Source of the DNA: a virus
Length of the DNA: 46,353 nt
IMG/VR virus record: IMGVR_UViG_3300037882_004947
Location: 1-46,353 of that record
Reading direction: 5' to 3' (one strand)
Below are positions 8,206 to 21,225 of this stretch, piece by piece (position 1 is the stretch's first letter; every line of letters begins with the position of its first letter). Position numbers and translations under genes: made by a program. Under the pieces are notes generated by a model that ran no database searches, was not told where the DNA came from, and saw only the letters and a list, made by a program, of their open reading frames with translations.

Positions 8206-8673
8206 ATGCCGGCCGCCAACCTCACCCCTTTTACTGGGTTCAACAGCGGGTTCAACACGTCTCCAAAGGGCGCTTCGATTCCCTTGGAGGCGGGTTTGAG
8301 TTTCTCGAACAACGTGCTCTTGTGGTTGCGCGTGCGCTTCACTGTTCAGCGAGTGTCCGGCAACGGGCGCATGATCGCTAGATTCGCGCAGGGTGTTTCT
8401 CAGGTCAACCCGGAGTGGAGTTTGGGCAGCGTCGTTGCGACAGGGGTGACTATTCAGGCGACGCGTCACTACCTGTGGCGCGTCAACCAGTTTCAGGCTA
8501 TCGCGGCGCCGCAAACCATTACGGACCCGTCAATTACGCACATGGCTCCGATCGACGTGCGCCTTCTGGGGTATCGGCGCGACGTGGACGCGACCTCGAT
8601 ACAGTTTCTGGGCAAGCTAGCTCCCCAGGCGGCCGACTTGGTTTCCACTTCGCGCGACTTTTTCCGGGTGTGA
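8206..8673 (+). CDS. Beta-rich hypothetical protein A
   Basis: 155 residues, rich in Val, Phe, Thr and Gly with regular alternating strands (LLWLRVRFTVQRVSG, VVATGVTIQATRHYLWRV) and few charged residues. It has no signal peptide, Cys or catalytic motif. The composition resembles a virion surface or decoration protein, but that is inference. It has its own leaderless-type promoter and is followed one base later by another beta-rich gene, so the two probably act together. Confidence 0.6.
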   Translation: MPAANLTPFTGFNSGFNTSPKGASIPLEAGLSFSNNVLLWLRVRFTVQRVSGNGRMIARFAQGVSQVNPEWSLGSVVATGVTIQATRHYLWRVNQFQAIAAPQTITDPSITHMAPIDVRLLGYRRDVDATSIQFLGKLAPQAADLVSTSRDFFRV

Positions 8674-8674
8674 T

Positions 8675-9163
8675 ATGCCAAATCTAGACTTCAGCGGTGT
8701 GTTGACCCTAGGTCGTGCGGGGTGGTGGGTGTCTCCTGACGGCGCCGGTATCTCGAGTTTCGTGGGGCAGACGGTTCCGCTCGACAGCTACATCTGGATA
8801 CGGACCCGCGTGTTTTCAACGCGGGCGAACGCGTACTCTACGCTGCAGCTGTTGTATCAGATCAACTTCAACGGAGTTCCGGGGGTGTGGTTGACCACGG
8901 ATGTGGGGGCGACGCCCGCGGCGCAGTCCGTTATGTTTACCCGGCATGTCCAGGTTTGGTGCAAGAAGGCCGATGTCATAACGGGTGCGGGGTTTCTGTC
9001 TAACGTGACGGGGGCTGTGAATTCGCAGTCGGCGGAGATTGTTGGTTGGCGGCCCCGTCCCTTCTCGAATGCAATGTTGGCGGAGGCCGGCTTACACTTT
9101 CCTACGCGTGCCGATTATGAGCGGGTGGCGCTTCAAGGGGCGCCGGTGTTCATGCGCATTTGA
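8675..9163 (+). CDS. Beta-rich hypothetical protein B
   Basis: 162 residues, beginning one base after the stop of the 8206 gene. It is Gly/Val/Thr-rich with aromatic strands (GRAGWWVSPDG, YIWIRTRVFSTRANAYSTL, AQSVMFTRHVQVW), a composition like its neighbour. No family recognised; a jelly-roll-like surface or tail accessory protein is possible. The short spacer between its stop and the next gene holds the palindromic promoter of the modification-like operon. Confidence 0.6.
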   Translation: MPNLDFSGVLTLGRAGWWVSPDGAGISSFVGQTVPLDSYIWIRTRVFSTRANAYSTLQLLYQINFNGVPGVWLTTDVGATPAAQSVMFTRHVQVWCKKADVITGAGFLSNVTGAVNSQSAEIVGWRPRPFSNAMLAEAGLHFPTRADYERVALQGAPVFMRI

Positions 9164-9165
9164 GC

Positions 9166-9201
9166 TTGCGCAGACTTACCCAAGTTGGGTAAGTTGGGTG
9201 C
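9166..9201 (+). promoter_or_regulatory. Palindrome-covered leaderless promoter of the 9202-15258 operon
   Basis: TTGCGC at 9166-9171, a 17-bp spacer and GTAAGT at 9189-9194, then seven bases to the ATG at 9202. The spacer and -10 are covered by a perfect inverted repeat, ACTTACCCAA (9174-9183), G, TTGGGTAAGT (9185-9194), 21 bp in all. It has no T run, so it is more likely an operator than a terminator. A bound regulator would block RNA polymerase, and one of the operon's own ParB-like proteins is a possible ligand (inference). Confidence 0.55.
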
Positions 9202-9921
9202 ATGAACGACGTGGCGCAGGCATACGACAAACTGGCTGAGGGTTGGGACAAGGCCTACACGGACAATCGGGCGCGGGCGGAGAACGCGCTTGTTTTCGAC
9301 TTGGTGGCTCGCCGGCTGTGGTTTATCGATCGTCTCTTCAAGAACCCCGCGTTTCCTCGCGTTTTGGACTTGGCGTGTGGGACCGGTTTGCTCCTGGATT
9401 GTTGCTCTTACCCGATCGATCCACACTTGTACGTCGGGTTGGATATCAGCTCAGGCATGATAGATCAGGCCCGGTTGAAGCACCCATTCTTCCGGTTTGA
9501 AGTGGCGGATATCGAGGCGGAGTTTCCACACGGTGCCGACCTGGCCGTGTGTGCGTTTGCCGGTGTGAGCTATCTGCGAGAGCCCTGCAAGTGGCTACGC
9601 TCTCTGTTCAAAGACTTGCCTCCGACCGGGCGCGTTTTTCTGATGCCGCTGGCCCCGCGCGCGGAGAAGGCGGAGGCCTACCACTACACGAACGAGGCAG
9701 GGGAACGCCTGCCACGACGCGTTTGGTCTGAGCAGGAGGCGCGGGCGTGGATGGCAGCGGCTGGGTTTGTTGACGTGACGGTGCGCGGTTTGACGGGTTG
9801 GAGCGAGAAGCTTACCGAGCGCGTGCCGCTGTGGCTGGGCAAGATTCTGCAGAAGGTGGACTACTGGACTTCGAAGCCAGACGATTGCCTGTTTTTGATC
9901 GTGGAAGGACGGAAACCCTAA
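9202..9921 (+). CDS. Class I SAM-dependent methyltransferase
   Basis: 239 residues. It has a short N-terminal cap (AQAYDKLAEGWDKAY), motif I FPRVLDLACGTGLLLD at about 50-65, an acidic strand VGLDISSGMIDQA at about 77-90, and VADIEAEFPHGADLAV. This is the layout of UbiE/Methyltransf_11-type enzymes that methylate small molecules rather than of DNA methyltransferases, which carry a (D/N/S)PP(Y/W) motif not seen here. It is the first gene behind the palindromic promoter, and its TAA overlaps the next ATG (TAATG), so it is tied to the PP-loop protein. The substrate is unknown. Confidence 0.8.
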   Translation: MNDVAQAYDKLAEGWDKAYTDNRARAENALVFDLVARRLWFIDRLFKNPAFPRVLDLACGTGLLLDCCSYPIDPHLYVGLDISSGMIDQARLKHPFFRFEVADIEAEFPHGADLAVCAFAGVSYLREPCKWLRSLFKDLPPTGRVFLMPLAPRAEKAEAYHYTNEAGERLPRRVWSEQEARAWMAAAGFVDVTVRGLTGWSEKLTERVPLWLGKILQKVDYWTSKPDDCLFLIVEGRKP

Positions 9922-11126
9922 TGCCTCGTTTACGTTTGGGTAAGAGCGTTTTCAGCGCTGCCAAGGAGCGCATCGCCACACTGATGCGGAGCGGGCACAA
10001 GGTCGTTGTGACGTTTTCGGGCGGCAAAGACTCAACGGTGTGTCTGGAGCTCGCGCTCATGGCGGCGCGTGAGACGGGCTACGGTGACGTGGACGTGGCC
10101 GTGCAGGACGAAGAGATAGCTTACCCCGGCACGTATGAGTTCATCGAGCGCACGGCGCAGCGCAAGGGGGTGAAGCTGCACTGGTACGTAATGCAGCAAC
10201 CCATGTTGAACGTGTTCAACAGGTTTGACCCGTACTGGTGGGTGTGCGACCCCCTGTTGAATCCAGGCGACTGGGTGCGCGAGCCGCCCAAGTGGGCGAA
10301 GTTCGTTGCGGACAAGAACCTCTACTTCATGGTGAATCCGGTACGTTTTCCCGTTTCGAGGGATACCGCGCCGGGCGAAGTGTGGGACCCAACGGACACA
10401 GCGCAGCGCCTGTGTGCGGTCATCGGGCTTCGCGCTTCGGAGAGCGCCAAGCGCTTGTTGGGTCTGTTCTCGTCGGGCGGTTACATCTCGGGGGCGAATG
10501 AGGCCGGGGTTCACCTGGTCCGCCCGATCTATGACTGGGGTGACGGGGATGTGTGGAAGTTCATTAGCGATCTGAAGATCGATTATAACAAGGCGTACGA
10601 CGTTCTGTACAAGATGGGCGCGCCCAAGTACCAGCTCCGCGTGGGTCCGCCGACGATGACGCGCGGTGGGATCAAGGGATTGGACATCGCTTCGCGCGCG
10701 TGGCCCAACTGGTTTGACCGCGTGGCGACCCGGGTTCCCGGTATTCGCACGGCAGTCCAATTTGGTGAGCGGGCAGTGATGCCCTACCGCCGCTATGGGG
10801 AGACGTGGGAAGCTTGCTTTCGTCGCGAGTGCTTGGGCCCGGATGTGCCGGAGTGGTTGAAGCAGCGCGCGGCAATTGTTGCGGACCACGCGGTTGCTGG
10901 ACATGCGCGGCACTCGACGCAGGCGTTTCCGGAGATTGACGGGTGCCGCCTGTGCGGCGTGCTCGGTAGTTGGAAGCAGGTAGCGCGCGTCATGTGGGGC
11001 GGCGACCCATACGGGCAAGGCGCTCCCAGCGTGCTCAAGTGCGTCGAGCCCGAGTTCTTCCGGCCAGGAGCGGGGACTTGGGGCGGTGAGTGGGCTAAAG
11101 GCAAGAACGTTAAGATCAACTTTTGA
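9921..11126 (+). CDS. PP-loop ATPase, PAPS-reductase family (IbrA-like)
   Basis: 401 residues. The PP-loop FSGGKDST lies at about 32-39, after a basic N-terminal helix. Downstream are 'AVQDEEIAYPGTYEF', 'GLRASES' and 'VRPIYDWGDGDVWKFI', all standard in PAPS-reductase-like N-type ATP pyrophosphatases such as the IbrA/DndC-type proteins of phages and bacteria. A C-terminal C-x2-C (GCRLCG near 340) may bind metal. These proteins adenylate a substrate; whether this one reduces sulfate, inserts sulfur or does something else cannot be told. Its adjacency to a ParB-like gene is the known ibrA/ibrB arrangement. Start ATG 9921 was chosen by the TAATG overlap. Confidence 0.85.
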   Translation: MPRLRLGKSVFSAAKERIATLMRSGHKVVVTFSGGKDSTVCLELALMAARETGYGDVDVAVQDEEIAYPGTYEFIERTAQRKGVKLHWYVMQQPMLNVFNRFDPYWWVCDPLLNPGDWVREPPKWAKFVADKNLYFMVNPVRFPVSRDTAPGEVWDPTDTAQRLCAVIGLRASESAKRLLGLFSSGGYISGANEAGVHLVRPIYDWGDGDVWKFISDLKIDYNKAYDVLYKMGAPKYQLRVGPPTMTRGGIKGLDIASRAWPNWFDRVATRVPGIRTAVQFGERAVMPYRRYGETWEACFRRECLGPDVPEWLKQRAAIVADHAVAGHARHSTQAFPEIDGCRLCGVLGSWKQVARVMWGGDPYGQGAPSVLKCVEPEFFRPGAGTWGGEWAKGKNVKINF

Positions 11127-11136
11127 GGTAGATTCT

Positions 11137-11970
11137 ATGAGTGAAATAACCGGACCGTTGTTGAACCAGGAAACCCGCAAGAAGGGCGAGAAGGCAGTTC
11201 GCTCAATCGCTCTCGAGCGTTTGCGTGTCGAGTATGCGGACATCGACTCGATCAAACCCAATAGCTACAACCCGAATCGCCAAGATGAGCGCGACTTCGA
11301 ATTGTTGCAGCGGAGCATTCGCGAGGACGGGTTTACGCAGCCTGTGGTTGTCCAAGCGGCGACGCGGGAGATTGTTGACGGGGAGCATCGTTGGCGCGCG
11401 GCGCGAGCGCTGGGTATGCGCCAGGTTCCCATCGTGCTGGTGGACATGACGCCCGAGCAGATGAAGGTGGCGACGTTGCGCCACAACCGGGCGCGCGGTA
11501 GCGAGGATGTGGAGTTAGGTGCAGCTCTACTCCGCGACTTGCGCCAATTGGGCGCGCTCGACTGGGCGAAGGATTCGCTCATGTTGTCGGATTCCGAGAT
11601 AGATCGCTTGATGTCGGATGTGCCGGTTGCCGAGCAGTTGGCAGGCGATAACTACGGCGAGGCGTGGGCACCGACCAAGGCTACGGTCAACGACATCAAA
11701 AAGCCCGGGGTCACGGAGTCTATGAGTGACGACGCGCGGGCGCAGGCGGCGGAGTTTCGCGAGAAGATGGCGGCGGCACCGAGTGACCAAGCGCGCCAGG
11801 CGCTCGAGTCGACCTACCGCGACAAGAGCCTGAAGATGCAGTTCAACTTCGTGGCGGAAGATGCCGACTTGGTGCGGCGCGTTCTCGAGCCCTCTCCCGC
11901 AAAGAAGATCTACGAGTTGTGTTTGGCCGAGCAGGCTCGCCGCGAACTGGACGCAGAGCTCGATGCCTAA
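11137..11970 (+). CDS. ParB-like nuclease-domain protein 1 (IbrB-like)
   Basis: 277 residues. The ParB/Srx-fold domain spans about 30-150: DIDSIKPNSYNPNRQ, then IREDGFTQPVVV, then the nucleotide-binding box G82-E83-H84-R85 (VDGEHRWRAARAL), then VPIVLVDMTPEQMKVATLRH. A linker and a C-terminal domain (MQFNFVAEDADLVRRVL) follow. It lacks the HTH and dimer domains of chromosome-partition ParB. ATG 11137 has GAGG ten bases upstream. It sits directly after the IbrA-like gene and overlaps the DNA methyltransferase gene by 8 bases. A second protein at 13312 is closely similar across the whole length. Confidence 0.85.
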   Translation: MSEITGPLLNQETRKKGEKAVRSIALERLRVEYADIDSIKPNSYNPNRQDERDFELLQRSIREDGFTQPVVVQAATREIVDGEHRWRAARALGMRQVPIVLVDMTPEQMKVATLRHNRARGSEDVELGAALLRDLRQLGALDWAKDSLMLSDSEIDRLMSDVPVAEQLAGDNYGEAWAPTKATVNDIKKPGVTESMSDDARAQAAEFREKMAAAPSDQARQALESTYRDKSLKMQFNFVAEDADLVRRVLEPSPAKKIYELCLAEQARRELDAELDA

Positions 11971-12658
11971 GTGGACCCACGGCGCGGGCGGGCTTGCCTT
12001 TGACGTGCGACCCGGAGACGTGTGGCGCGTAGGGGACGAGCCCCACTGGATTGCCTGCGGAGACGTGCAGGCCGGGCAGCTGCACGCGTTTGCGGAGAGG
12101 TTCTGCCCTCCCGGCCTGGTGGTTGTGACCGACCCTCCCTGGAATCAAACGATGGCTAAGGCTTTTCGTACGCGAGCCGGGGAGGCTGGGCACATGGCGG
12201 ACTTCGACGCTCTGATTGGGCAGTTCTTCGACGCCATTCGCGTGTTGGCTCCCCGGGTGTGCGTCGTGGAGATGGGGGAGCAGCACGCTGCCAAGATCGA
12301 TCAGCAGCTGCGTGAGCGAGGGTACCCTTTCGTGGAGGGCACGCGGGTGCCCTACGGGCGGTCGACCTCGGTGTTGATTGCGGGTGTGCGCGAGGCCGAG
12401 CAGATGGGTGCGTGGAAGGAGCAGCCAAAGGAGAAGACGAGTTACCGAGAGGTGATGCGCCGTTGGCTGGGGCGCTCGACCAAGGCACCCAACGTCGTGC
12501 TTGACCCCTTCTGCGGGCTTGGGCTCATTCCCAAAGCAATCGTGCAGGCAGGCGGTGAGGTGCGCGGCTTCGAGCTGCACCCGAACCGCGTAAGCCGTAC
12601 CCTCGTTGAGCTGGCGAAGCTCACAGGCAAGGCCCCTCAACGCGTGGGGTATCTGTGA
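11963..12658 (+). CDS. Beta-class DNA methyltransferase (N6-adenine or N4-cytosine)
   Basis: 231 residues. The catalytic motif IV, TDPPWN, is near residue 57, and the SAM-binding motif, LDPFCGLGL, is near 181, followed by GFELHPNRV. Motif IV before motif I is the beta-class order seen in amino-methyltransferases such as phage N6A/N4C enzymes. The sequence specificity region is short, so the target is probably a short site. No matching restriction gene is seen, so it may protect phage DNA from host enzymes or take part in the modification set around it. Start ATG 11963 overlaps the ParB-like stop. Confidence 0.85.
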   Translation: MPKWTHGAGGLAFDVRPGDVWRVGDEPHWIACGDVQAGQLHAFAERFCPPGLVVVTDPPWNQTMAKAFRTRAGEAGHMADFDALIGQFFDAIRVLAPRVCVVEMGEQHAAKIDQQLRERGYPFVEGTRVPYGRSTSVLIAGVREAEQMGAWKEQPKEKTSYREVMRRWLGRSTKAPNVVLDPFCGLGLIPKAIVQAGGEVRGFELHPNRVSRTLVELAKLTGKAPQRVGYL

Positions 12659-13305
12659 GAATCGGGATTGCTATCATGGCGGTGCCATCTCGGGAGCGAG
12701 CCGCGACGGCGTTGCACGAAGCCATTCCCGGCTCGTTGGTTTCGTACGACTGCGACCAGCAAGGGCCGTGGGTGGGCTTCAAACAGGCTTACGCGTTGCT
12801 CAGTGCCTGGCGGCCCGACACGACACACCGCTTGGTCATCCAGGATGACGTGATTCTGTGTCCCAACTTCGTCGAGGTACTCGAGCGAGTGGTGCGCGTG
12901 CGGCCGACATCGCCGCTGTGCTTGTTCACCGCACGGCAATCCGATTACGACGCCGCAGATGCCAAGGGCGTGCACTTGCTGGCGTCCAAGCACTGCGATG
13001 GGCAGGCTGTACTTTTCCCCGCCTACCTCGCGCAGCAGGCGTTTGACTGGATTGCTCATCGCGAGGGCACAGCTATCGCGGAGCGCCAGACCTGGCGTAA
13101 TTCGAGCGACCAGCGCTTGGATACGTGGAGCCGCATGACGTACACACCGTTTCTCTACACGGTGCCTACGCTTGTCGATCACGACCTTACGCTCAAGTCC
13201 ACGTTGCGACACCCGTCGCGTACGCGTTTCGGTTTGCGAAACTCCAAGCGCTTCGCTGGGGAAGACGCGCTCACAATAGATTGGGGCCGTTTGCCCCAGA
13301 AGTAG
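12655..13305 (+). CDS. Glycosyltransferase-like protein (GT-A type, putative)
   Basis: 216 residues; GTG start overlapping the methyltransferase stop (GTGA). The N terminus RIGIAIMAVPSRERAATAL and the central HRLVIQDDVILCPNFVEVL resemble the nucleotide-sugar strand and acidic metal motif (Q-D-D, in place of DxD) of GT-A glycosyltransferases. Further on, GQAVLFPAYLAQQAFDW and TPFLYTVPTLVDHD fit the acceptor half. Phages use such enzymes to glycosylate modified bases or virion proteins. Its place inside the ParB/PP-loop/DNA-methyltransferase cluster makes a DNA-linked role attractive, but this is inference. A small hairpin (13282-13298) lies at its 3' end. Confidence 0.6.
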   Translation: MRIGIAIMAVPSRERAATALHEAIPGSLVSYDCDQQGPWVGFKQAYALLSAWRPDTTHRLVIQDDVILCPNFVEVLERVVRVRPTSPLCLFTARQSDYDAADAKGVHLLASKHCDGQAVLFPAYLAQQAFDWIAHREGTAIAERQTWRNSSDQRLDTWSRMTYTPFLYTVPTLVDHDLTLKSTLRHPSRTRFGLRNSKRFAGEDALTIDWGRLPQK

Positions 13306-13311
13306 GAAGCT

Positions 13312-14082
13312 ATGTCAGTGGAAAAGAATAACAACGTGTTGGAAAACCTGGAGATCGATTACCTGCCGGTGGATTCGATCAAGCCGAACTCGTACAACCC
13401 GAACCGTCAGAGCGAGCATGACTTCGAGCTGCTATGCAAGTCGATTCAGGCGGATGGGTTTACCCAGCCCATCGTTGTGCTGAAGGAGAGCAAGACGATT
13501 GTTGACGGGGAGCACCGTTGGCGGGCGTGCAAGGCGCTGGGACACAAGGAGGTTCCCTGTGTGTTGGTCGACATGACCGAGGAGCAGATGCGGATTGCGA
13601 CGCTGCGTCACAATCGAGCGCGCGGTAAAGAGGTGCAGTCGCTCGCCGCGGACGTGCTTCGCAGTTTGGCAGCCGAGGGCGCCCTCGACTTCGCGAAGGA
13701 TGAGCTTGGGCTCGATAACACCGAAGTCTCGCGCTTGCTTGCCGACTCCCAGGCTATCGAGCTGGAGTCGTTGAATGCGGACGTAGGGGAAGACCTGCTC
13801 GGTCCGGACGGCAAGGGGTTGACCGATGGGGACCGAGAGACGGGCGTCGACACCGAGGCGGACCAGACCCGAGCCAAGGAGCGCTTGCTTGCCGCAGCCA
13901 AGTCGGCTGAGGAAAAGGCGATGTCCGACACGGATAGAAGTTACAGACTTACGCTGATGTACACCGAGACGGAGGCGAAAGTTGTGAAAGGTATTCTCGG
14001 TAGCCACAAGGCCGAGATTAGTGAGCGCTTGCTTCACCTTTGCAGGGATGAAGAGGCGCGGTTGAAAGGAGCAAGCGCATGA
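13312..14082 (+). CDS. ParB-like nuclease-domain protein 2
   Basis: 256 residues, an evident paralogue of the 11137 protein: both have 'DSIKPNSYNPNRQ', 'DGFTQP(V/I)VV', 'VDGEHRWRA' (here G66-E67-H68-R69), 'VLVDMT' and 'ATLRHNRARG'. The C-terminal domain (YRLTLMYTETEAKVVKGIL) also matches that of protein 1 in layout. The linker between the domains differs and is acidic (about 140-190). ATG 13312 has only a weak, very close purine stretch upstream. It overlaps the next gene as ATGA. Two intact copies in one operon may form a hetero-oligomer or bind different nucleotides. Confidence 0.85.
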   Translation: MSVEKNNNVLENLEIDYLPVDSIKPNSYNPNRQSEHDFELLCKSIQADGFTQPIVVLKESKTIVDGEHRWRACKALGHKEVPCVLVDMTEEQMRIATLRHNRARGKEVQSLAADVLRSLAAEGALDFAKDELGLDNTEVSRLLADSQAIELESLNADVGEDLLGPDGKGLTDGDRETGVDTEADQTRAKERLLAAAKSAEEKAMSDTDRSYRLTLMYTETEAKVVKGILGSHKAEISERLLHLCRDEEARLKGASA

Positions 14083-14669
14083 ATGTCACAGAATTGTTAT
14101 CCACGTTCCCGGGCTGCACGATGCTGCCTACCCTCAGTCTGTGGGACCAGCTCCCCGAAGCGCAACGCCAGCTCAGCCCAGAGCAGGCGATGTGGCTGGG
14201 CAACGTCAAAACCCAGCTCATGACGCGCGGGTTCACTTCACCTATCCTTCTCCGGCAAGTGTCGGTCGCGTTTGACAAGTTGGAGAATTCTGTAGTTTCT
14301 GGACTGGAGTTTCTCCACGCGGCGAGGGAACTGCGGATGCACGAGGTGCCGGTTGTCTACCTGACGCAGCACGACTTGGGCGACCTGGACAACCGGTTTG
14401 CCTACCATGCGCCACACGGCACGCAGGCGGCTCGGTACGGAGCGGTGCGCGACCTCTGCAAGAACCTGGCTTACCAACTGTCGATGCTCGCTCCCGCATC
14501 GCCCGAGTTGCAGCAGGCGCTGAACGCGCTCGACCTCGCTATGTTCCAGGCAAACGCGGCGATTGCTCGGCGCGAAGCCAAGCCAGCACCGAAGGCCGCT
14601 CCGGAGCAGCTGGCGTTGCGCACGGTAGCTGAGGTCGCCGCGCCGTTGTTCAAAGAGCCCAAGGCGTGA
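14079..14669 (+). CDS. Degenerate ParB-like protein 3
   Basis: 196 residues. The order of elements copies the two ParB-like proteins, but key residues are gone. 'VKTQLMTRGFTSPILLRQV' stands for '.I..DGFTQP.VV', 'VSGLEFLHAARELRMHEVPVVYL' stands for 'VDGEHRWRA..ALG..(V)PIVLV'. The GEHR nucleotide box is replaced by G-L-E-F. The C-terminal ~80 residues are helical and unlike the others. The reading frame is intact and coupled on both sides (ATGA before, GTGA after), so it is probably a real protein, perhaps a non-catalytic partner, rather than a pseudogene. The relationship is inferred by eye. Confidence 0.6.
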   Translation: MNVTELLSTFPGCTMLPTLSLWDQLPEAQRQLSPEQAMWLGNVKTQLMTRGFTSPILLRQVSVAFDKLENSVVSGLEFLHAARELRMHEVPVVYLTQHDLGDLDNRFAYHAPHGTQAARYGAVRDLCKNLAYQLSMLAPASPELQQALNALDLAMFQANAAIARREAKPAPKAAPEQLALRTVAEVAAPLFKEPKA

Positions 14670-14869
14670 CCGAGCGTCCCCGGCGTGAATGCCCTGTGTG
14701 CGGGGCGCCTGTTTTGCTGTCGTGCTTGGTAAGCCACGTCGGCTCGAGCAGGTGCGTGAACCGCTTGCACGTCGTTCACGCCGGGAAGCCAGTCCAACCC
14801 CACGGAGCCGAAGCACTAGCGGCGGCGGCAGCGCTGCACCGCATTCTCCGGCAAGGGAAACCCTCATGA
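14666..14869 (+). CDS. Small zinc-ribbon protein
   Basis: 67 residues; GTG start overlapping the preceding stop (GTGA). ECPVCGAPVLLSCLVSHVGSSRC gives a C-x2-C plus a later Cys/His/Cys set able to bind one zinc. The remainder is a short Ala/His-rich helix. No family recognised. It overlaps the following gene as ATGA. Confidence 0.55.
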   Translation: MTERPRRECPVCGAPVLLSCLVSHVGSSRCVNRLHVVHAGKPVQPHGAEALAAAAALHRILRQGKPS

Positions 14870-15258
14870 GCGACAACCCAGCGCAGCGCCCGACACTGAA
14901 AGAGGCGCAGGCAGACATCCGCAGGCGGGCCAACGAGCACCGCAGGAAAACGAAACTTGCAGTTTCGGAAGCAATAAGAAACCTAGAACTTGCGAGCCTA
15001 ATCGAAAAGCTCGCGGCGGTGCAGGAACTAACGCTAAACCCGCCGGGGGAACTGAGACCCATACAAGGGGACAAGGGGTATCAGTGCTTCCGCCTAGCGG
15101 TGCAACTGCAGCTGCTGCTAGGCCAGCTTTACCAGGAGCTCACTCCCGGCCAAGCCGAACTGACCTCCCTGCAGCAGCCAACGAGCGCCCCGTGTGCCGT
15201 GCAGGGTTGGGGCGAGAGGTGTCAGGGTGTCGGGATCGCATCAGCGCGTTGTAAGTAG
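14866..15258 (+). CDS. Helical hypothetical protein with unusual codon use
   Basis: 130 residues; ATG overlaps the preceding stop, with AAGGGAAA upstream. The N-terminal 80 residues are strongly helical and charged (LKEAQADIRRRANEHRRKTK, SLIEKLAAVQEL). The end is irregular with several Cys. Codons such as ATA, CTA and AGA are used here and are scarce in the flanking genes, and the DNA is richer in A and C than its surroundings. It is the last gene of the modification-like unit. Function unknown. Confidence 0.55.
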   Translation: MSDNPAQRPTLKEAQADIRRRANEHRRKTKLAVSEAIRNLELASLIEKLAAVQELTLNPPGELRPIQGDKGYQCFRLAVQLQLLLGQLYQELTPGQAELTSLQQPTSAPCAVQGWGERCQGVGIASARCK

Positions 15259-16067: not shown

Positions 16068-16240
16068 GCTACAAGCGCTTATTCCCAGTTTGGTGCGTTT
16101 TTGTGTGGTTTTGCCTGTTGTTTTACCTGCGTTACGCCGAGCAGAAGTGTGTGCGGTCGAGCTGCCCCAAAGGGTATCTAGCGACGCATGAGCTCGATCG
16201 CGAGCCGAGCTGTATGTGTGAGCCCGGAGCGCTGCCATGA
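16064..16240 (+). CDS. Small membrane-anchored Cys-rich protein, copy 1
   Basis: 58 residues, joined by ATGA overlaps on both sides. A membrane segment (VWCVFVWFCLLFYL, about 9-22) is followed by a short outer domain with C-x4-CPKG and a terminal C-x-C-x-PG (SCMCEPG). The same plan and spacing recur in the 30566 protein (CPPG then CFCAFPG), so the two form a small family. Spanin or signalling roles are possible; nothing decides between them. Confidence 0.6.
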   Translation: MSYKRLFPVWCVFVWFCLLFYLRYAEQKCVRSSCPKGYLATHELDREPSCMCEPGALP

Positions 16241-16620
16241 ATAAAGACTACGTGGAAGTTATTGCGCGGGTGTGTCACGAGGTGAACCGTGCCTACTGCG
16301 CGTCCTATGGCGACCACACGCAACCAACGTGGGAGGACGCACCCGAGAGCAGTCGCAGAGCGACCCGCGAGGGAGTAGAGGCGTGCCTTTCCGGCGAGTG
16401 CACCGGGCCGGGGAAAACACACGACAACTGGGCGGCTGCTCTGTTTCGCGATGGGTGGGTGCATGGCTTCGAGAAAGACCCTGTGGCCAAGACGCACCCT
16501 GGTTTGGTGCCGTTTGAGCACTTGCCGCACCGCGAGCAGGTGAAGGACCACTTGTTCATCGCGGTTGTGCGTTCGCTCGCGAGCTATGGGTTTTTCACCT
16601 CGCGATTGGATGGGATCTGA
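16237..16620 (+). CDS. RyR-domain protein
   Basis: 127 residues, essentially one RyR (ryanodine receptor) repeat domain. 'IARVCHEVNRAYCASYGD' is the first helix, 'TWEDAPESSRRATREGVEACL' follows, then 'THDNWAAALFRDGWVHG', 'KTHPGLVPFEHLP' and 'KDHLFIAVVRSL'. These are the conserved HE.NR.YC, W..AP, H..W....DGW..G, HP.LVP(Y/F)..L and KD.LF.. positions. Bacterial and phage RyR domains are of unsettled function and have been linked to nucleotide-centred conflict systems. It is in an ATGA-coupled string with the small membrane protein. Confidence 0.8.
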   Translation: MNKDYVEVIARVCHEVNRAYCASYGDHTQPTWEDAPESSRRATREGVEACLSGECTGPGKTHDNWAAALFRDGWVHGFEKDPVAKTHPGLVPFEHLPHREQVKDHLFIAVVRSLASYGFFTSRLDGI

Positions 16621-16642
16621 TGAGTGAAAGGAAGGATCGATC

Positions 16643-16897
16643 ATGGGTTCTAGACGATACACGCTAACCGATCTGCAGGTTCTGGTTGCGGTTGCCAAGG
16701 CGAACGAGAATGGTCAGACGGAGTGGGAGCCTGCGCGAGGGCAGCAGGCAGCGGCGACGCGCCTTTGCAAGGCTGGCTTTCTGCTGGAGCGCCCAAACGG
16801 TAACACGGTGCCGTCGACGTACATCCCGAGCCTGCGGGGCGATGAGCTAGCGGTTATCATGCTCGACCTCCTGCGCGGAATGGCAATGCGACCATGA
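16643..16897 (+). CDS. Small winged-helix-like protein
   Basis: 84 residues with AAGGAAGG upstream of ATG 16643. 'LTDLQVLVAVAKANENGQ', 'ATRLCKAGFLLERPNGN' and a basic hairpin ending in STYIPS look like a short winged helix (helices, recognition helix, wing). A phage regulator is the likely role; the target is unknown. It ends in an ATGA overlap with the next gene. Confidence 0.55.
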   Translation: MGSRRYTLTDLQVLVAVAKANENGQTEWEPARGQQAAATRLCKAGFLLERPNGNTVPSTYIPSLRGDELAVIMLDLLRGMAMRP

Positions 16898-17124
16898 GCC
16901 GGATGGTTGAGGTGCATCCGCAGGTTCTCGCACAGTTGCAGGAGCGGGCGGCGCGATGCTCGGAACTGGAGAGCAAGGTGGTCGAGGTAGTGGCAGAGTT
17001 GCTGCGTTGGAGTGGCGAGGAGTTGCGGCCCGTCATACCACGAACAGCATGGAATAGCGGTCGCTCGAACGGGTTGCTCAAGGCTGCCGAAATGGTCGCG
17101 GAGAAGCTGGGGGCGAAGTCGTGA
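16894..17124 (+). CDS. Small helical hypothetical protein
   Basis: 76 residues, ATGA overlap at the start and GTGA at the end. Nearly all helical (VHPQVLAQLQERAARCSELE, then VVEVVAELLRW) with an 'NSGRSNGLLKAAEMVAEKLG' tail. A coiled-coil or oligomerising protein of unknown role. Confidence 0.55.
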   Translation: MSRMVEVHPQVLAQLQERAARCSELESKVVEVVAELLRWSGEELRPVIPRTAWNSGRSNGLLKAAEMVAEKLGAKS

Positions 17125-17348
17125 CAACCGAAACAATCGATAAGCTGTTCTTAGAGCTGTCACAGGTTACCAGTGCAACTACTGCCAAGGAGTGCCGGCT
17201 TCTTGACTTAGCCGAGGCGACCAAGCCATTTGTGGAATTGGTTAAGGGTTCGAACGGGCGCATACCTGTGGAGAAGCTTTCGCTCGCCGACTGGCACCGC
17301 TTGGTGAAGGCTTGGGACAAGTGCGTCAAACAGGGCTTGTTGACGTGA
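17121..17348 (+). CDS. Small hypothetical protein
   Basis: 75 residues, GTG start coupled to the previous stop and GTGA overlap at its end. Helical (IDKLFLELSQVTSATTAKEC, LSLADWHRLVKAWDKCVKQG). The last part could be a short helix-turn-helix, but no clear motif is present. Confidence 0.5.
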   Translation: MTTETIDKLFLELSQVTSATTAKECRLLDLAEATKPFVELVKGSNGRIPVEKLSLADWHRLVKAWDKCVKQGLLT

Positions 17349-17617
17349 CTGACGACAAGAACATGTTGGTAGTCCTGGGGCGATGTTTCACGTGGAACGC
17401 ACGGTACCAGCGGTGGGAGTGTCGTCTCAAAGGGCTTCGAAGACAGGGCGGGCCCTTGCTGATTCTGATGCAACGGGTGACACTGGGGCCTCACCCCGAG
17501 ACGTTTTGGGTGGCGACGGCGTACGACAAGAGCAAGGACGGGGTGACGGCGGAGGAGGCGGTTACAAAACTGCAGAACTACTGGCTGCAGATTGCCGCGC
17601 TCGAGCCCTTGGGTTGA
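17345..17617 (+). CDS. Small hypothetical protein
   Basis: 90 residues from GTG 17345, GTGA-coupled to the preceding gene. A beta-rich first half (LVVLGRCFTWNARYQRWECRL, LLILMQRVTLG, ETFWVATAYD) is followed by a helix. Last gene before the first repeat promoter. No family recognised. Confidence 0.55.
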   Translation: MTDDKNMLVVLGRCFTWNARYQRWECRLKGLRRQGGPLLILMQRVTLGPHPETFWVATAYDKSKDGVTAEEAVTKLQNYWLQIAALEPLG

Positions 17618-17679
17618 ATTCGACACCGACGACACTTTTAACACTTGCAACTGTCGCGAACCCATGCGATAGTTAGTTC
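17618..17679 (+). promoter_or_regulatory. Repeat promoter, copy 1 (leaderless)
   Basis: Conserved upstream ATTCGACAC and ACTTTTAACAC boxes, TTGCAA at 17645-17650, 17-bp spacer, GATAGT at 17668-17673, six bases, then ATG 17680. Upstream box, -35, -10 and distance to ATG match the other copies. CTGTCG...CGATAG is an imperfect inverted repeat over the spacer and -10. Confidence 0.7.
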
Positions 17680-17919
17680 ATGAGCGCGACACGCACCGCA
17701 GCCGAACTTGAAGTGAACGTTTTGATTCGCGAGATGGCCGGCTTCAAGAGCTTCATTGACGGGTACCGCTGCAAGGTGGACGTCGCCATTCTGCTGATCA
17801 TCGCGGAGGCGCGCGGGTGGGACGTTGAGGCTACGGCTGAGTATGTCGGGCGGCTTGTGAGCGAGCGCACGCTGGTTGAGGTAGAGCCCAACCTGCTGTT
17901 CGTTCCGGCGCCTTTCTGA
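17680..17919 (+). CDS. Small hypothetical protein behind repeat promoter 1
   Basis: 79 residues, starting at the predicted transcription start. Helical N-terminal part (AAELEVNVLIREMAGFKSF), then VAILLIIAEARGWDVEATAEYVGRL, which could hold a helix-turn-helix ('GWDVEATAEYVGRLV'). No Shine-Dalgarno. A regulator is possible but unproven. Confidence 0.6.
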   Translation: MSATRTAAELEVNVLIREMAGFKSFIDGYRCKVDVAILLIIAEARGWDVEATAEYVGRLVSERTLVEVEPNLLFVPAPF

Positions 17920-17951
17920 GATTCCACAGACAAGTTGAAAGGGTTGAGTTT

Positions 17952-18494
17952 ATGAGTTGGGTTACCGAGGTACGGGCAGCAGTTGAAGGGTTGAGCTTGG
18001 ACGTTGTCGAGATGTCCGAGGCGGCGGTGGTCAAGTTCGAGGAGGTCTGGGTGTACTTCCGAAGCGACCGGTCCGTTGATACGCGGACGATGCATCTTCC
18101 CGGCGTGTTGAGGGAGGGCGAGCGTGCAGCTTTGGATGCGGTTGTGAGTCAGCTGGACAGGCGTGTGTGGCGTTTCGCCTTGAGCGGAGATTCCTCGAAA
18201 CCTTGGCACGATCAGTTGAGCGAAAAGCATCATTTGCACAATGACCTGGCGGTGGAGGCTTTGTTGGACCTGCATAGCCGCTTGGTGCAGTTGGAGGCGC
18301 ACGCGCCGACCTCCGCAGAGCCAACGGCCAGGCCAGAGGCAACCAAGCTGCAAGAGCTGAGGGCTTTGCGGATTACGCACTCGGTCATCCGCGACAATGG
18401 GCGGCGGGCAGAGGTGGAGCTCAGCGTGAGTGGCGATGTCACGGCAATCGATACTGTGCGTATTGGGAAGCACCGGTACACACGCGTCGAGTAA
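17952..18494 (+). CDS. Hypothetical protein
   Basis: 180 residues, with GAAAGGG upstream of ATG 17952. N-terminal mixed domain (VRAAVEGLSLDVVEMSEAAV), middle helix, then an Ala/Pro/Thr linker (SAEPTARPEATKLQEL) and a C-terminal beta region (AEVELSVSGDVTAIDTVRIG). No family recognised. Its GAG-TAA end runs directly into repeat promoter 2. Confidence 0.6.
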   Translation: MSWVTEVRAAVEGLSLDVVEMSEAAVVKFEEVWVYFRSDRSVDTRTMHLPGVLREGERAALDAVVSQLDRRVWRFALSGDSSKPWHDQLSEKHHLHNDLAVEALLDLHSRLVQLEAHAPTSAEPTARPEATKLQELRALRITHSVIRDNGRRAEVELSVSGDVTAIDTVRIGKHRYTRVE

Positions 18495-18555
18495 TTCGAC
18501 ACCGACGACGCTTTTTACACTTGCGAAGTCTATCGATCAATGCGATAGTTTGATC
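18495..18555 (+). promoter_or_regulatory. Repeat promoter, copy 2 (leaderless)
   Basis: Upstream TTCGACAC and CTTTTTACAC boxes, TTGCGA at 18521-18526, 17-bp spacer, GATAGT at 18544-18549, six bases, ATG 18556. CTATCG and CGATAG, separated by seven bases, form an inverted repeat across spacer and -10. Confidence 0.75.
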
Positions 18556-18774
18556 ATGAACAAGCAAGACCTCGTAACGATGACCCTCAACCAAACCCGG
18601 CAAAACGCTTTGGTTGAGGCCGCAGGATTGGATAACGCTCAGCAGCTTCGCACGTTGAGTTCTTTCGACCTGCGTAAGGCAGCTTCCAAGGCTGCCTCGA
18701 TCTTGAACAAGCTTGGGGTTGTACATCCCAAGGGCGTGCGATGGTCTGCGGACAAGGTTCTCACCACGTTTTGA
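18556..18774 (+). CDS. Small helical protein behind repeat promoter 2
   Basis: 72 residues beginning MNKQDLVTMTLNQTRQNALV. Helical throughout with a basic C terminus (FDLRKAASKAASILNKLGVV). It begins at the predicted transcription start. Function unknown; a DNA-binding role is possible from charge. Confidence 0.6.
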   Translation: MNKQDLVTMTLNQTRQNALVEAAGLDNAQQLRTLSSFDLRKAASKAASILNKLGVVHPKGVRWSADKVLTTF

Positions 18775-18790
18775 TTCGGAGGTTTCGCTA

Positions 18791-19147
18791 ATGGGAACGC
18801 ACGCTACAATTGGGTACTGGGACCCCGAGAAGGGTCACATCGTGGAGGCTTACTTGCACTACGATGGGGCCAGCGCGGCGACGCTGCGCGAGCACTACAA
18901 TTCGTTGGAGTTGGCGAAGTATCTGGTGAGCGGCGGCGACATGTCGACGTTGGGCGCGAGTTGTTCGGCGCCCGAGGGGCACAGCTTTTCTACGCCGGTG
19001 GATGGGTACACGGTGTACTATCGGCGAGATCGAGGTGAGTCCGGTTGCGGGCCTCGGTCGACGCACATGCTGGCGTTTCGTTTGCGGACGGAGATTAGCT
19101 ACCTGTTCAAAGATGGCGAATGGCAGGTTTTCTACGAGAGGCGCTGA
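18791..19147 (+). CDS. Conserved phage protein of unknown function
   Basis: 118 residues; GGAGG lies ten bases before ATG 18791. 'MGTHATIGYWDPEKGHIVEAYLHYDG', 'LREHYNSLELAKYLVSGGDMSTLG' and 'TVYYRRDRGE' match a phage family I know in the form 'MGTRATIAV....V..IYCHWDG....G..L..HY.....V..L...GD.S.LG'. Its function is not established. A short TGATG-linked reading frame follows. Confidence 0.7.
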   Translation: MGTHATIGYWDPEKGHIVEAYLHYDGASAATLREHYNSLELAKYLVSGGDMSTLGASCSAPEGHSFSTPVDGYTVYYRRDRGESGCGPRSTHMLAFRLRTEISYLFKDGEWQVFYERR

Positions 19148-19200
19148 TGAAAAACATTCTTGTGGATTGCGATTACTCTCAGCTTGAGGAGTTGCGATGA
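19147..19200 (+). CDS. 17-residue mini-gene with polymerase-like motif (doubtful)
   Basis: ATG 19147 overlaps the upstream stop (TGATG), and its own stop overlaps the next start (ATGA), so it fits neatly into the gene chain. The product contains DYSQLEELR, close to the family A DNA polymerase motif A 'DYSQIELR'. It may be a relic of a polymerase gene, a leader peptide or chance. Confidence 0.3.
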   Translation: MKNILVDCDYSQLEELR

Positions 19201-19397
19201 ATGTGGATGACTGCCGCTACTGTGGGCACAAGGCTAAGGTGCACGCGTTGCGCCGAGGCAACTATCAGCGTACGGGCGACAATTACCAGGTGACGTGCAA
19301 CGGTTGCAGATGCCGCGGGCCACTGGTGAAGGATTCTGAGGCGAAGGCCGTGGAGGCGTGGAACGCGATGCAGCGGGGCGAGACCTGCTTTGGATGA
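19197..19397 (+). CDS. Lar-like zinc-ribbon protein
   Basis: 66 residues, ATGA start. CRYCGHKA...VTCNGCRCRGP then AVEAWN is the standard Lar/restriction-alleviation-like pattern: C-x2-C, about 25 residues, C-x2-C, G, then '..A...WN'. Members are common in phages; Rac-prophage Lar modulates type I restriction-modification, but most homologues are untested. Placing it in an anti-restriction role is inference. Confidence 0.65.
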   Translation: MNVDDCRYCGHKAKVHALRRGNYQRTGDNYQVTCNGCRCRGPLVKDSEAKAVEAWNAMQRGETCFG

Positions 19398-19632
19398 GCT
19401 CATCGTTCGCGAGCGGCGCAGCCGGCTTCACCATATGTCTGAAAAGAAATGGACGGCGGCGTACTGCGCCCCCTTCCAGCAGGCGATGCGGGCGTTGTTG
19501 CCTGTATGCACCGATGGGGACTGTTTTCTTTCCGGGAGCGCGTTGCACGTGGGGCCCTGCGTGCCGTGTGAATGCGGGTTGGAGCACGCTATAGACGAGT
19601 GCCCGGAAAACTATCTAGGGAGCGACGAGTGA
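19390..19632 (+). CDS. DECP-family Cys/His protein, copy 1
   Basis: 80 residues from TTG 19390 (ATG 19435 would give 65). It has CAPFQQAMRAL, then C-x4-C-F-LSGS-x2-H-V-G-x-C-x2-C-x-CG-x2-HAIDECP-x2-Y. Six Cys and two His fit one or two zinc ions. The same module occurs in genes at 23669, 23931 and 25040, so this is a four-member family within 6 kb. No outside family recognised. Linked to the next gene by TGATG. Confidence 0.6.
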   Translation: MDELIVRERRSRLHHMSEKKWTAAYCAPFQQAMRALLPVCTDGDCFLSGSALHVGPCVPCECGLEHAIDECPENYLGSDE

Positions 19633-19928
19633 TGAGCGACGAGGTTACCTACGAAGGGTGCGAGCAGTTTGTTGGTTGGACCGTTACCCTCATTCCGATG
19701 ACCGCAGGCGAGTTTGGGGAGCCGGGTTACAGTCTCGACTGCCCCGGGTACAAGCGGGTGCACCTAACCCCGTCCAAGCATGACGTGTACATGCTGCAGC
19801 AAGAGGAGCGTGACGGGAGTGTGACCGAGGGGCGGCGTGCTTGGGTGCACAATCGCTCGCCGGATTGGGTCGAGGATGGCTGGCTTGTCGAGTGGCTGAA
19901 GCACGGTTTGTTGAAGCGCGTGAAGTGA
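19632..19928 (+). CDS. Hypothetical protein
   Basis: 98 residues from ATG 19632 (TGATG overlap). A beta-rich start (EQFVGWTVTLIPMTAG), a central 'HDVYMLQQEERDG' and a C-terminal Trp-rich helix (DWVEDGWLVEWLKHGLLKR). No family recognised. It is followed by the 273-base non-coding region. Confidence 0.55.
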   Translation: MSDEVTYEGCEQFVGWTVTLIPMTAGEFGEPGYSLDCPGYKRVHLTPSKHDVYMLQQEERDGSVTEGRRAWVHNRSPDWVEDGWLVEWLKHGLLKRVK

Positions 19929-20139
19929 GCGAAGGGGTTTCGAACCCTCCAGTCTGTTGAGCTATCTCAGGTAATGCTGTTGCGCGGGACGATGCAGGGT
20001 CCCGTTAAACGCAGGGGATTGACCCTGAGTCGAGCGAGTATGGGCGGCCGTGCTCGAGCCGTACCGCAATGACCTCGGCAACTTGTGCGCACGCCGGTGA
20101 GAAGCCGGTCGGTAGCTCAACAGACTGGAGGGTTTGAAC
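19929..20139. repeat. Non-coding region framed by a 26-bp inverted repeat
   Basis: No gene is seen between 19929 and 20201. Bases 19939-19964 and 20113-20138 are inverted copies with one mismatch in 26 (22 contiguous matches), flanking 148 bp. The arm, read 5' to 3' on either strand, contains TAGCTCAACAGACTGGAG, which resembles a tRNA D-arm (TA-GCTC...GAG), but no full cloverleaf follows. Smaller hairpins can form inside (for example GGGAC/GTCCC near 19987-20003). Possible readings are a panhandle RNA, remnants of two tRNA-like halves, or a small non-autonomous element. Confidence 0.6.
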
Positions 20140-20201
20140 TTTCGACACTCGCGACGCTTTTTATACTTGCGAAGTCTATCGATCAATGCGATAGTTAGGT
20201 C
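20140..20201 (+). promoter_or_regulatory. Repeat promoter, copy 3 (leaderless)
   Basis: TTTCGACAC and CTTTTTATAC boxes, TTGCGA at 20167-20172, 17-bp spacer, GATAGT at 20190-20195, TAGGTC, then ATG 20202. CTATCG-N7-CGATAG inverted repeat present. It begins just after the 26-bp inverted repeat. Confidence 0.75.
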
Positions 20202-20360
20202 ATGAACAGCAAGCTGAGCAAGACCGCGATCAAGAACCCGAAGTTCAGGATTTCCGTTTACTGGGCCGCGCTCGAGACGTGCACCACGGACGCTCAAGAA
20301 AAGTGCGTTCTCGAGCAGATTGAAGCTACGGCTCGGGTCTTGGCGCGAGGGCGCTGGTGA
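20202..20360 (+). CDS. Small protein behind repeat promoter 3
   Basis: 52 residues beginning MNSKLSKTAIKNPKFRISVYW, then helical (EKCVLEQIEATARVLARGRW). It begins at the predicted transcription start and ends in a GTGA overlap with the following gene, so it may serve as the leader frame for it. No family recognised. Confidence 0.55.
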   Translation: MNSKLSKTAIKNPKFRISVYWAALETCTTDAQEKCVLEQIEATARVLARGRW

Positions 20361-20863
20361 GCTCGCTTAAGGAGTCGATCGTGCAAGTTCAAATCTCGAA
20401 AGAAGGGCGCCGCTACTACCTGCTGGGTAACACCTACGCTATCAAGGATGCGCTTCGTGCAGCCGGTGCGAAGTGGGACCGGGAGCGCGGCGCTTGGTGG
20501 ACGAGCAAGCCTGACGTGGCGGCTCGTTTTGAAGAGCAGGTGCGAGAGAAGTCTGCGGCGCTTGAAGCGGTGCAGGCAGCAACGGCAAACGAGCCGCGAA
20601 GCGCGGTGCGCGGGAACACTTACCCTGTGCGCGAGGCGTTGAGGGCGCTTGGTGGAACGTGGGATGCCGCAGGCAAGGTGTGGGTTGTCCCTGCGTCCAA
20701 AGAGGCGGAGGCCAACGCGCTGGTTGCCGCTGCACCGAAGTCGACCTTTAAGCGACCTTCGCCCGATGGTTACTATCGCAGAGGCGGGCAGACCTTGGCG
20801 CGAGGGTGTGCGGACTGTTCCCGGCTAGGGCGGATGTGCGCGCAGTGCGAGTTCGATTCCTGA
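20357..20863 (+). CDS. Protein with two GNTYPV/WD-type repeats and a Cys cluster
   Basis: 168 residues from GTG (GTGA overlap). Two copies of one motif: LLGNTYAIKDALRAAGAKWD...GAWWTSK (about 22-52) and VRGNTYPVREALRALGGTWD...KVWVVPA (about 84-115). I recognise this 'G-T-Y-x-V-K-x2-L-x2-L-G-(G/A)-x-W-D-x5-W' unit from other phage and plasmid proteins, where it is a small alpha/beta module of uncertain role. The C terminus has GCADCSRLGRMCAQC, a C-x2-C...C-x2-C zinc site. Confidence 0.6.
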   Translation: MSSLKESIVQVQISKEGRRYYLLGNTYAIKDALRAAGAKWDRERGAWWTSKPDVAARFEEQVREKSAALEAVQAATANEPRSAVRGNTYPVREALRALGGTWDAAGKVWVVPASKEAEANALVAAAPKSTFKRPSPDGYYRRGGQTLARGCADCSRLGRMCAQCEFDS

Positions 20864-20865
20864 AC

Positions 20866-20927
20866 TTTCGACACTGGCGACGCTTTTTATACTTGCGAAC
20901 CCTCTAGGGCCGTGCGATAGTTAGGTC
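20866..20927 (+). promoter_or_regulatory. Repeat promoter, copy 4 (leaderless)
   Basis: TTTCGACAC and CTTTTTATAC boxes, TTGCGA at 20893-20898, 17-bp spacer, GATAGT at 20916-20921, TAGGTC, ATG 20928. The spacer differs from copies 2, 3, 5 and 6 and carries CCCTCTAGGG instead of CTATCG, suggesting a different operator. Confidence 0.75.
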
Positions 20928-21212: not shown

Positions 21213-21225
21213 AAGGACCCGCCCG

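What the first reader, a model, noticed from the sequence alone, without database searches (positions are those of the whole stretch)
9166..15258. A palindrome-controlled operon pairing PP-loop/ParB with methyltransferases, a glycosyltransferase and two more ParB-like proteins
Seen: nine coupled genes behind one promoter encode a SAM methyltransferase, a PAPS-reductase-like PP-loop ATPase, ParB-like 1, a beta-class DNA methyltransferase, a GT-A-like protein, ParB-like 2, a degenerate ParB-like 3 and two small proteins. Known: PAPS-reductase-like and ParB-like genes occur as pairs (IbrA/IbrB), with unclear biochemistry, and phages use methyl- and glycosyltransferases on DNA. Inferred: the set makes or places a modified base or sulfur/adenyl group on phage DNA, with the ParB-fold proteins acting as nucleotide-dependent adaptors.
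Basis: partly seen in the sequence, partly recalled or inferred. Interest (0 to 1): 0.78.

Follow-up and report, generated by a model that had tools for sequence, protein, structure and literature searches.

The report
Phage operon for modifying its DNA
A phage carries a nine-gene operon whose core (an ATP-using PP-loop enzyme, a methyltransferase and ParB-like proteins) recurs beside the DNA-packaging genes of dozens of unrelated phages with a swappable finishing enzyme, so it is probably a toolkit for chemically disguising phage DNA; here it also carries a protein with an immune-signal-sponge domain.

Summary
The operon is real: nine overlapping or near-adjacent ORFs at 9202-15258, behind a perfect palindrome (9174-9194). 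Homologue searches show a conserved viral module. In 43 PP-loop lineages (<80% identical), a SAM methyltransferase lies beside the gene in 32/37, a ParB in 40/41, and a GT-A glycosyltransferase (18) or beta-class amino-methyltransferase (10) in 23/41. Ordinary phage PP-loop/ParB pairs show 2/78, 77/78, 4/78 and 2/78. Other lineages hold a 2OG-Fe(II) oxygenase, a GNAT or a C5-methyltransferase near the same place. Terminase follows in 37/41. I read it as a DNA-modification (anti-restriction) cassette with exchangeable decorating enzymes. No product is shown, and the chemistry is inferred.

No similar fusion was found among 80 inspected hairpin loci. The sister phage has an unrelated 77-aa ORF in that slot. 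The palindrome is conserved in the sister phage, but no promoter was found.

Best filed as a new variant of a known kind (phage PP-loop/ParB pairs). Not Dnd, CysH or CmoX/CmoY by sequence tests.

The parts
9174..9194 (.). Perfect inverted repeat (10-bp arms, 1-nt spacer; core ACTTACCC-N5-GGGTAAGT) just upstream of the first ATG; candidate operator or mRNA hairpin at the start of the operon
   Evidence: core conserved at L177:2318-2338 upstream of the sister PP-loop gene; RNA fold z -3.5 and -5.1
9202..9921 (+). Class I SAM-dependent methyltransferase (239 aa), conserved module member
   Evidence: Methyltransf_23 6.3e-15; homologue beside the PP-loop gene in 32/37 evaluable lineages
9921..11126 (+). 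PP-loop (PAPS-reductase-like) ATP pyrophosphatase, 401 aa, SGGKDS; Cys304, Cys342 and Cys345 conserved in most lineages
   Evidence: PF01507 2.8e-14, phrog_2302 4.7e-57; conservation over 38 sequences
11137..11970 (+). ParB-like 1 (277 aa), intact GEHRWRA and RHNRARG boxes, conserved C-terminal domain
   Evidence: PF02195 1.5e-15; 57% identical to the ParB1 of sister L177
11963..12658 (+). Beta-class amino-methyltransferase (231 aa), DPPWN then DPFCGLGL motifs; exchangeable accessory
   Evidence: PF01555 5e-5, PADLOC MTase_II 3.3e-6; present in 10/41 lineages
12655..13305 (+). GT-A glycosyltransferase (216 aa), QDD motif; exchangeable accessory
   Evidence: phrog_854 7.7e-16; AlphaFold pLDDT 89, PDB best E 1.9e-6; present in 18/41 lineages
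13312..14082 (+). ParB-like 2 (256 aa), paralogue of ParB1 (44% identity)
   Evidence: PF02195 5.4e-15; 57% identical to the ParB2 of L177; paralogy
14079..14669 (+). ParB-like segment (residues 44-96, GEHRWRA replaced by GLEFLHA) joined to an Acb2/Tad1 hairpin (residues 108-164); window-specific insertion
   Evidence: PF24729 46.3 bits vs cut-off 27; ParB profile 19.9 bits, max of 2000 shuffles 7.1; hairpin pLDDT 90-95, N-terminal part low; no homologue in 81 module loci
14666..14869 (+). Small CxxC...C protein, possibly zinc-binding
   Evidence: Only sub-threshold zinc-ribbon hits; homologue in sister L177, 42%
14866..15258 (+). Small protein of unknown function
   Evidence: No family hit, no homologue in 81 module loci

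Best explanation
The operon is a phage DNA-modification cassette. The core is a PP-loop enzyme plus ParB/Srx-fold partners. The PP-loop enzyme uses ATP to adenylate a group on the substrate (inferred from the superfamily) so that a nucleophile can be attached. The ParB proteins bind nucleotide and/or DNA and present the substrate (inferred). The SAM methyltransferase and the exchangeable enzymes (here a DPPW amino-methyltransferase and a GT-A glycosyltransferase; a 2OG-Fe(II) oxygenase, GNAT or C5-methyltransferase in other lineages) add or finish the group. The likely result is a decorated genome that escapes restriction, made around the time of packaging. In this phage the operon also carries an Acb2/Tad1-hairpin protein, which may sequester cyclic-nucleotide immune signals. 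Shown: gene content, conserved linkage, terminase adjacency, exchangeable slot, hairpin homology. Inferred: substrate (DNA), chemistry, counter-defence role, sponge activity.
For: 43 PP-loop lineages: MT 32/37, ParB 40/41, GT or beta-MTase 23/41, against 2/78, 77/78, 4/78 (GT) and 2/78 (beta-MTase) near ordinary phage PP-loop genes with the same profiles. GT and beta-MTase are scattered over the PP-loop tree no more clustered than shuffled labels, as for swappable parts. Other group-transfer enzymes sit near the PP-loop gene: 2OG-Fe(II) oxygenase L237, GNAT L224, C5-MTase L220. TerL on the same strand within 7 kb downstream in 37/41, against 16/56 around unrelated Acb2 genes. ParB of this type is fused to DNA methyltransferases in phages: ParB1, ParB2 and the beta-MTase all hit the same fused protein of phage AcaML1 and PADLOC MTase_II. 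Published precedent links ParBc genes with AMP-forming ligases in phage cytosine hypermodification (PMC12783734), and Dnd pairs a PP-loop enzyme with a ParB-superfamily protein (PMC10853773). Acb2/Tad1 hairpin.
Against: No modified nucleoside is shown, and nothing proves DNA rather than RNA or a small molecule. Terminase linkage is also common for ordinary PP-loop/ParB pairs (42/57), so it is not specific to this module. Sister phage L177 carries only PP-loop + ParB1 + ParB2, with no MT, beta-MTase or GT at this locus, so the decorators are dispensable. Residues nearly invariant in Acb2 relatives are changed in the window hairpin (W157 to Q, E152 to D), so it may not bind signals.
Confidence: 0.55

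Rival explanations
1. The module modifies RNA (for example tRNA, to replace or protect tRNAs cleaved by defence nucleases) or makes a small modified nucleotide; the methyltransferase and glycosyltransferase act on that product.
For: PP-loop enzymes such as TilS, TtcA and QueC act in RNA modification (established knowledge); QueC and ATP_bind_3 give weak hits to P0002; the SAM-MT's best phage family is a weak 'tRNA methyltransferase' hit, 9.9e-5.
Against: No tRNA gene in the window; the beta-class MTase carries DPPW/DNA-MTase motifs and hits ParB-DNA MTase fusions; strong linkage to terminase.
Confidence: 0.18
2. The PP-loop/ParB pair is a regulatory (IbrA/IbrB-like) device controlling phage or prophage gene expression; the methyltransferases and GT are independent passengers in a recombination hot spot.
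For: Phage PP-loop/ParB pairs are annotated IbrA/IbrB in several records; a conserved palindrome sits at the operon start; the site lies upstream of terminase, at the entry to the late region.
Against: The MT is fixed beside one PP-loop subfamily (32/37) but near-absent from other PP-loop genes (2/78), which a random hot spot would not give; the PP-loop keeps an intact SGGKDS-type motif in every lineage.
Confidence: 0.12
3. The module puts sulfur into DNA, as a Dnd-like phosphorothioate or a thiolated base: the PP-loop enzyme with its conserved cysteines is a DndC/TtcA-like sulfur transferase and host IscS supplies sulfur.
For: Cys304, Cys342 and Cys345 conserved in 31 of 38 sequences; DndC is described as a PP-loop protein with a three-cysteine 4Fe-4S centre, and host IscS can replace DndA (PMC10853773).
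Against: P0002 scores 21 bits against DndC TIGR03183 (cut-off 290); no DndD/DndE among the family hits of the nine proteins; seven of 38 sequences lack at least one of the three cysteines, five of them lacking Cys342 and Cys345.
Confidence: 0.1
4. The glycosyl- and methyltransferases modify virion proteins or host cell-surface molecules and are only co-located with PP-loop/ParB.
For: The closest solved GTs act on proteins or glycans (Mimivirus R655, POMGnT1, GnT I).
Against: In 18 of 41 lineages the GT is near the PP-loop gene, often directly between it and ParB; fold similarity does not define the acceptor.
Confidence: 0.05

Closest known systems
Phage PP-loop (PAPS-reductase-like) / ParB pairs, annotated IbrA/IbrB
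   Same: Adjacent PP-loop and ParB genes, usually upstream of terminase; same Pfam domains.
   Different: This subfamily adds a fixed SAM-MT and exchangeable GT, MTase, GNAT or 2OG enzymes, two paralogous GEHRW-type ParBs and, here, an Acb2/Tad1-hairpin protein.
Dnd / Type 4 BREX phosphorothioation (DndC or BrxP with DndB)
   Same: PP-loop ATP pyrophosphatase plus a ParB-superfamily protein; conserved cysteines in most sequences.
   Different: No close DndC match (21 vs 290 bits); no DndA, DndD, DndE or restriction genes among the family hits; methyl- and glycosyltransferases instead.
CmoX/CmoY cytosine hypermodification of Synechococcus phage S-B43 (PMC12783734)
   Same: Same logic: a transferase makes a handle, an AMP-forming enzyme activates it, and ParBc genes are linked.
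   Different: No CmoA model hit for the SAM-MT; PP-loop ATPase instead of the AMP-forming ligase; different methyltransferases.
Phage ParB-DNA methyltransferase fusions (phrog_498, PADLOC MTase_II PDLC03229)
   Same: ParB1, ParB2 and the beta-MTase match the ParB and MTase parts of these fusions.
   Different: Here the parts are separate genes linked to a PP-loop enzyme.
Acb2 / Tad1 sponge proteins
   Same: Residues 108-164 of P0007 match the Acb2/Tad1 hairpin above the Pfam cut-off, with F107, H110, R124, E143, A147, N159, A160, I162, A163 retained.
   Different: Joined to a ParB-like N-terminal segment instead of a short helix (Acb2) or beta-sheet (Tad1); W157 and E152 substituted; oligomer and ligand untested.

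Membership tests
PP-loop/ParB (IbrA/IbrB-like) phage pair | PAPS_reduct-type PP-loop gene adjacent to a ParB_N gene | tested here: met
PP-loop/ParB (IbrA/IbrB-like) phage pair | Role as co-activator of gene expression | not testable with these tools
   Needs a transcription assay
CysH PAPS reductase | Score above the NCBIfam CysH/PAPS-reductase cut-offs | tested here: not met
   Best 24 bits against cut-offs of 154-254
Dnd phosphorothioation | DndC equivalog plus DndD/DndE (DndA may be replaced by host IscS) | tested here: not met
   DndC 21.2 vs 290.4 bits; no other Dnd protein among the family hits of the nine operon proteins
CmoX/CmoY pathway | CmoA-type Cx-SAM synthase, C5-MTase CmoX and AMP-forming ligase CmoY | tested here: not met
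   No CmoA, C5-MTase or AMP-ligase family hit in the operon; CmoX and CmoY profiles themselves were not available
Partition ParB | ParB_N domain with a helix-turn-helix DNA-binding domain and a ParA partner | tested here: not met
   ParB_N met in P0003 and P0006; no HTH domain hit and no ParA among the operon proteins; P0007 below the ParB_N threshold
Acb2/Tad1 hairpin domain | PF24729 above the curated cut-off | tested here: met
   46.3 vs 27 bits
Acb2/Tad1 sponge protein | Stand-alone Acb2 or Tad1 architecture, hexamer, binding of cyclic nucleotides or gcADPR | not testable with these tools
   Architecture differs (N-terminal ParB-like segment); no ligand or oligomer assay possible
GT-A glycosyltransferase | GT-A fold with a metal-binding DxD-like motif | tested here: met
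   Fold match E 1.9e-6 to Mimivirus R655, prob 1.0; D64, D65, D152, H176 invariant
Beta-class amino-MTase | DPPW motif before a D-x3-G-x-G SAM motif | tested here: met
   D57, P59, D181, G185, G187 invariant in 12 sequences, P58 in 11; Pfam score 23.8 vs cut-off 26.7

The most novel reading that the evidence does not exclude
A widespread, previously undescribed viral system in which one PP-loop/ParB/SAM-MT core installs an activated handle on phage DNA and interchangeable enzymes (GT-A, amino-MTase, 2OG oxygenase, GNAT) turn it into different hypermodified bases; in this phage the same operon also joins a ParB-like segment to an Acb2/Tad1 hairpin, combining anti-restriction and anti-CBASS/Thoeris functions in one transcript.
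Probability: 0.35. Interest if true: 0.82.

Novelty: new variant of a known kind. Interest (0 to 1): 0.62.

Why it matters
PAPS-reductase-like/ParB pairs are common in phages but their biochemistry is unclear and they are often annotated as sulfur metabolism or plasmid partition. A conserved partner set with a swappable finishing step turns them into a concrete, testable hypothesis (DNA hypermodification) and names the enzymes to test. If correct, it adds a large reservoir of unknown phage DNA modifications, and this operon would join anti-restriction and anti-signalling functions.

Tried and rejected
Single-sequence searches of IMG/VR with P0007 and with P0002 found no relatives; alignments were needed. 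The GTDB scan found only two MAG contigs carrying the PP-loop subfamily. Apparent long N-terminal extensions of Acb2 homologues did not match a ParB segment; most looked like alternative-frame sequence in GC-rich DNA. AlphaFold did not confirm a ParB fold for the P0007 N-terminus (low pLDDT, helical; Foldseek uninformative), so that assignment rests on sequence only. The weak L112 hit to P0007 was inspected and rejected because no ParB-hairpin protein was seen there. Dnd, CysH and CmoX/CmoY membership were tested by profile and rejected. The palindrome as a shared operator of the module was rejected: only the window and sister L177 have it among 253 loci, and tblastn found no module genes near the other IMG/VR sites. 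Papers: no description of this module or of a ParB-Acb2 joining was found in the open-access library; Iyer et al. 2013 (NAR gkt573, recalled from memory as the most likely earlier description) is not held.
Full report
What is there. The window is a 46,353-base IMG/VR virus record, GC 60%, with single-strand-binding protein, RecA, SbcC-like, terminase large subunit and portal genes. Nine + strand ORFs run from 9202 to 15258 with overlaps of 1-8 nt or gaps of 6-10 nt. By Pfam, PHROGs, NCBIfam and PADLOC they are: a class I SAM methyltransferase; a PP-loop (PAPS-reductase-like) enzyme; ParB-like 1; a small DPPW beta-class amino-methyltransferase; a glycosyltransferase; ParB-like 2; a ParB-like/Acb2 protein; and two small proteins. 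ParB1 and ParB2 are paralogues, 44% identical, with intact GEHRWRA and RHNRARG boxes.

The amended gene. A profile of P0007 with its relatives finds a solved 'Acb2 homolog 43' (9ptq) at 2.4e-5; one of those relatives also gives weak hits to Tad1 structures, about 0.03. Residues 44-96 resemble the middle of ParB (19.9 bits; the best of 2000 shuffles scored 7.1), but the GEHRWRA box is GLEFLHA. AlphaFold gives a confident hairpin and an unconfident N-terminal part, so the ParB fold there is not confirmed. Of 367 hairpin relatives in IMG/VR, the 80 best were kept and none showed a ParB-like N-terminus. Acb2 and Tad1 are phage sponges that sequester CBASS or Thoeris signals (PMC12043709; PMC11722364). 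Some near-invariant hairpin residues are changed in P0007 (W157 to Q, E152 to D), so activity is uncertain.

The module elsewhere. Scans with the PP-loop subfamily found 79 viral loci and two MAG contigs. Iterated profiles in their flanks were reduced to 43 lineages under 80% identity. Near the PP-loop gene, the SAM-MT occurs in 32 of 37 loci with enough sequence, ParB in 40 of 41, GT in 18, beta-MTase in 10, and either of these two in 23. The same profiles around 78 ordinary phage PP-loop genes gave MT 2, ParB 77, beta-MTase 2, GT 4. Some control loci are short, so the control may be somewhat undercounted, but the contrast is large. On a tree of the PP-loop proteins the GT label needs 12 changes against 12.6 in shuffles, so these enzymes come and go. 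Other lineages carry a 2OG-Fe(II) oxygenase (L237, between PP-loop and ParB; sub-threshold, 25.2 vs 27 bits), a GNAT acetyltransferase (L224, same place) or a C5-cytosine methyltransferase (L220, just after the PP-loop gene).

Position. TerL lies on the same strand within 7 kb downstream in 37 of 41 module lineages, 42 of 57 ordinary PP-loop/ParB pairs and 16 of 56 Acb2 control loci (the TerL profiles were seeded partly from module phages, a bias towards them). In the window TerL is 20 kb away, an exception.

The sister phage. L177 (IMGVR 3300036761_003349) is the closest relative (57% in PP-loop, ParB1 and ParB2; 64% in TerL). It has SbcC, PP-loop, ParB1, ParB2, a 77-aa ORF, a P0008 homologue, an HTH-like gene and TerL. 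Relative to it, the window phage has four extra genes in three places: the MT before the PP-loop, the beta-MTase plus GT between ParB1 and ParB2, and P0007 where L177 has the 77-aa ORF. The palindrome core ACTTACCC-N5-GGGTAAGT is kept upstream of both operons although what follows it differs (MT here, PP-loop there). Both sites also fold as strong RNA hairpins (z -3.5 and -5.1), so DNA operator and RNA hairpin remain open. No sigma-70 promoter was found.

Chemistry. The PP-loop signature SGGKDS is conserved in all 38 aligned sequences except its first G; Cys304, Cys342 and Cys345 are all present in 31. P0002 is not a close CysH or DndC (24 and 21 bits against cut-offs of 154 and 290). The GT has a GT-A fold with an invariant D64-D65. 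The beta-MTase and the ParBs match the two halves of phage ParB-DNA methyltransferase fusions, which argues for DNA as the substrate. Published parallels are CmoX/CmoY, where an AMP-forming ligase and ParBc genes accompany cytosine hypermodification (PMC12783734), and Dnd, with a PP-loop enzyme plus a ParB-superfamily protein (PMC10853773).

Conclusion. The best-supported reading is a phage DNA-modification cassette with a conserved core and exchangeable finishing enzymes, carrying in this phage an additional Acb2/Tad1-hairpin protein. Substrate and product are inferred. Rivals are RNA or nucleotide modification, an IbrA/IbrB-type regulatory device, sulfur transfer, and modification of proteins or surface glycans. 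It is filed as a new variant of the known phage PP-loop/ParB kind; no family whose defining feature failed (Dnd, CysH, CmoX/CmoY, partition ParB) is claimed. Whether the wider neighbourhood was described before could not be fully checked, because Iyer et al. 2013 is not held.

Noticed in passing
window 1617-3569: RecA gene with an in-frame insertion carrying an intein splicing domain (PF14890) and an HNH motif, probably a RecA intein with a homing endonuclease.
   Followed up: partly
window 16068-35100: About 19 kb of mostly small ORFs separate the HTH-like gene (15267) from TerL (35101), whereas in sister L177 about 1.3 kb separates the orthologues; looks like a large insertion or rearrangement.
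   Followed up: no
window 8206-9163: Two tandem proteins of about 160 aa with similar sequence patterns just upstream of the operon, function unknown; they lie between the SbcC-like gene and the operon, a position where L177 has a different 181-aa ORF.
   Followed up: no
L096 11385-11957: A 190-aa ORF between PP-loop and ParB with a FYCLDTHSPHQ motif reminiscent of cupin/2OG folds but no Pfam or PHROG hit.
   Followed up: partly
L003 8308-9207 (Mycobacterium phage Gaia) and L010 7305-8235: Phage ParB partners of PP-loop enzymes annotated as ectoine-synthase/ParB multidomain proteins, fused in Gaia and split in XCL1123, suggesting a further enzyme type linked to this pair.
   Followed up: no
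P0003 residues about 226-277, P0006 about 201-256: Conserved C-terminal domain of module ParBs; a similar-looking pattern ends the other ParB of Compostia (L011 1-693) and Shrooms (L012 3310-3960). No family name found; comparison by eye only.
   Followed up: no
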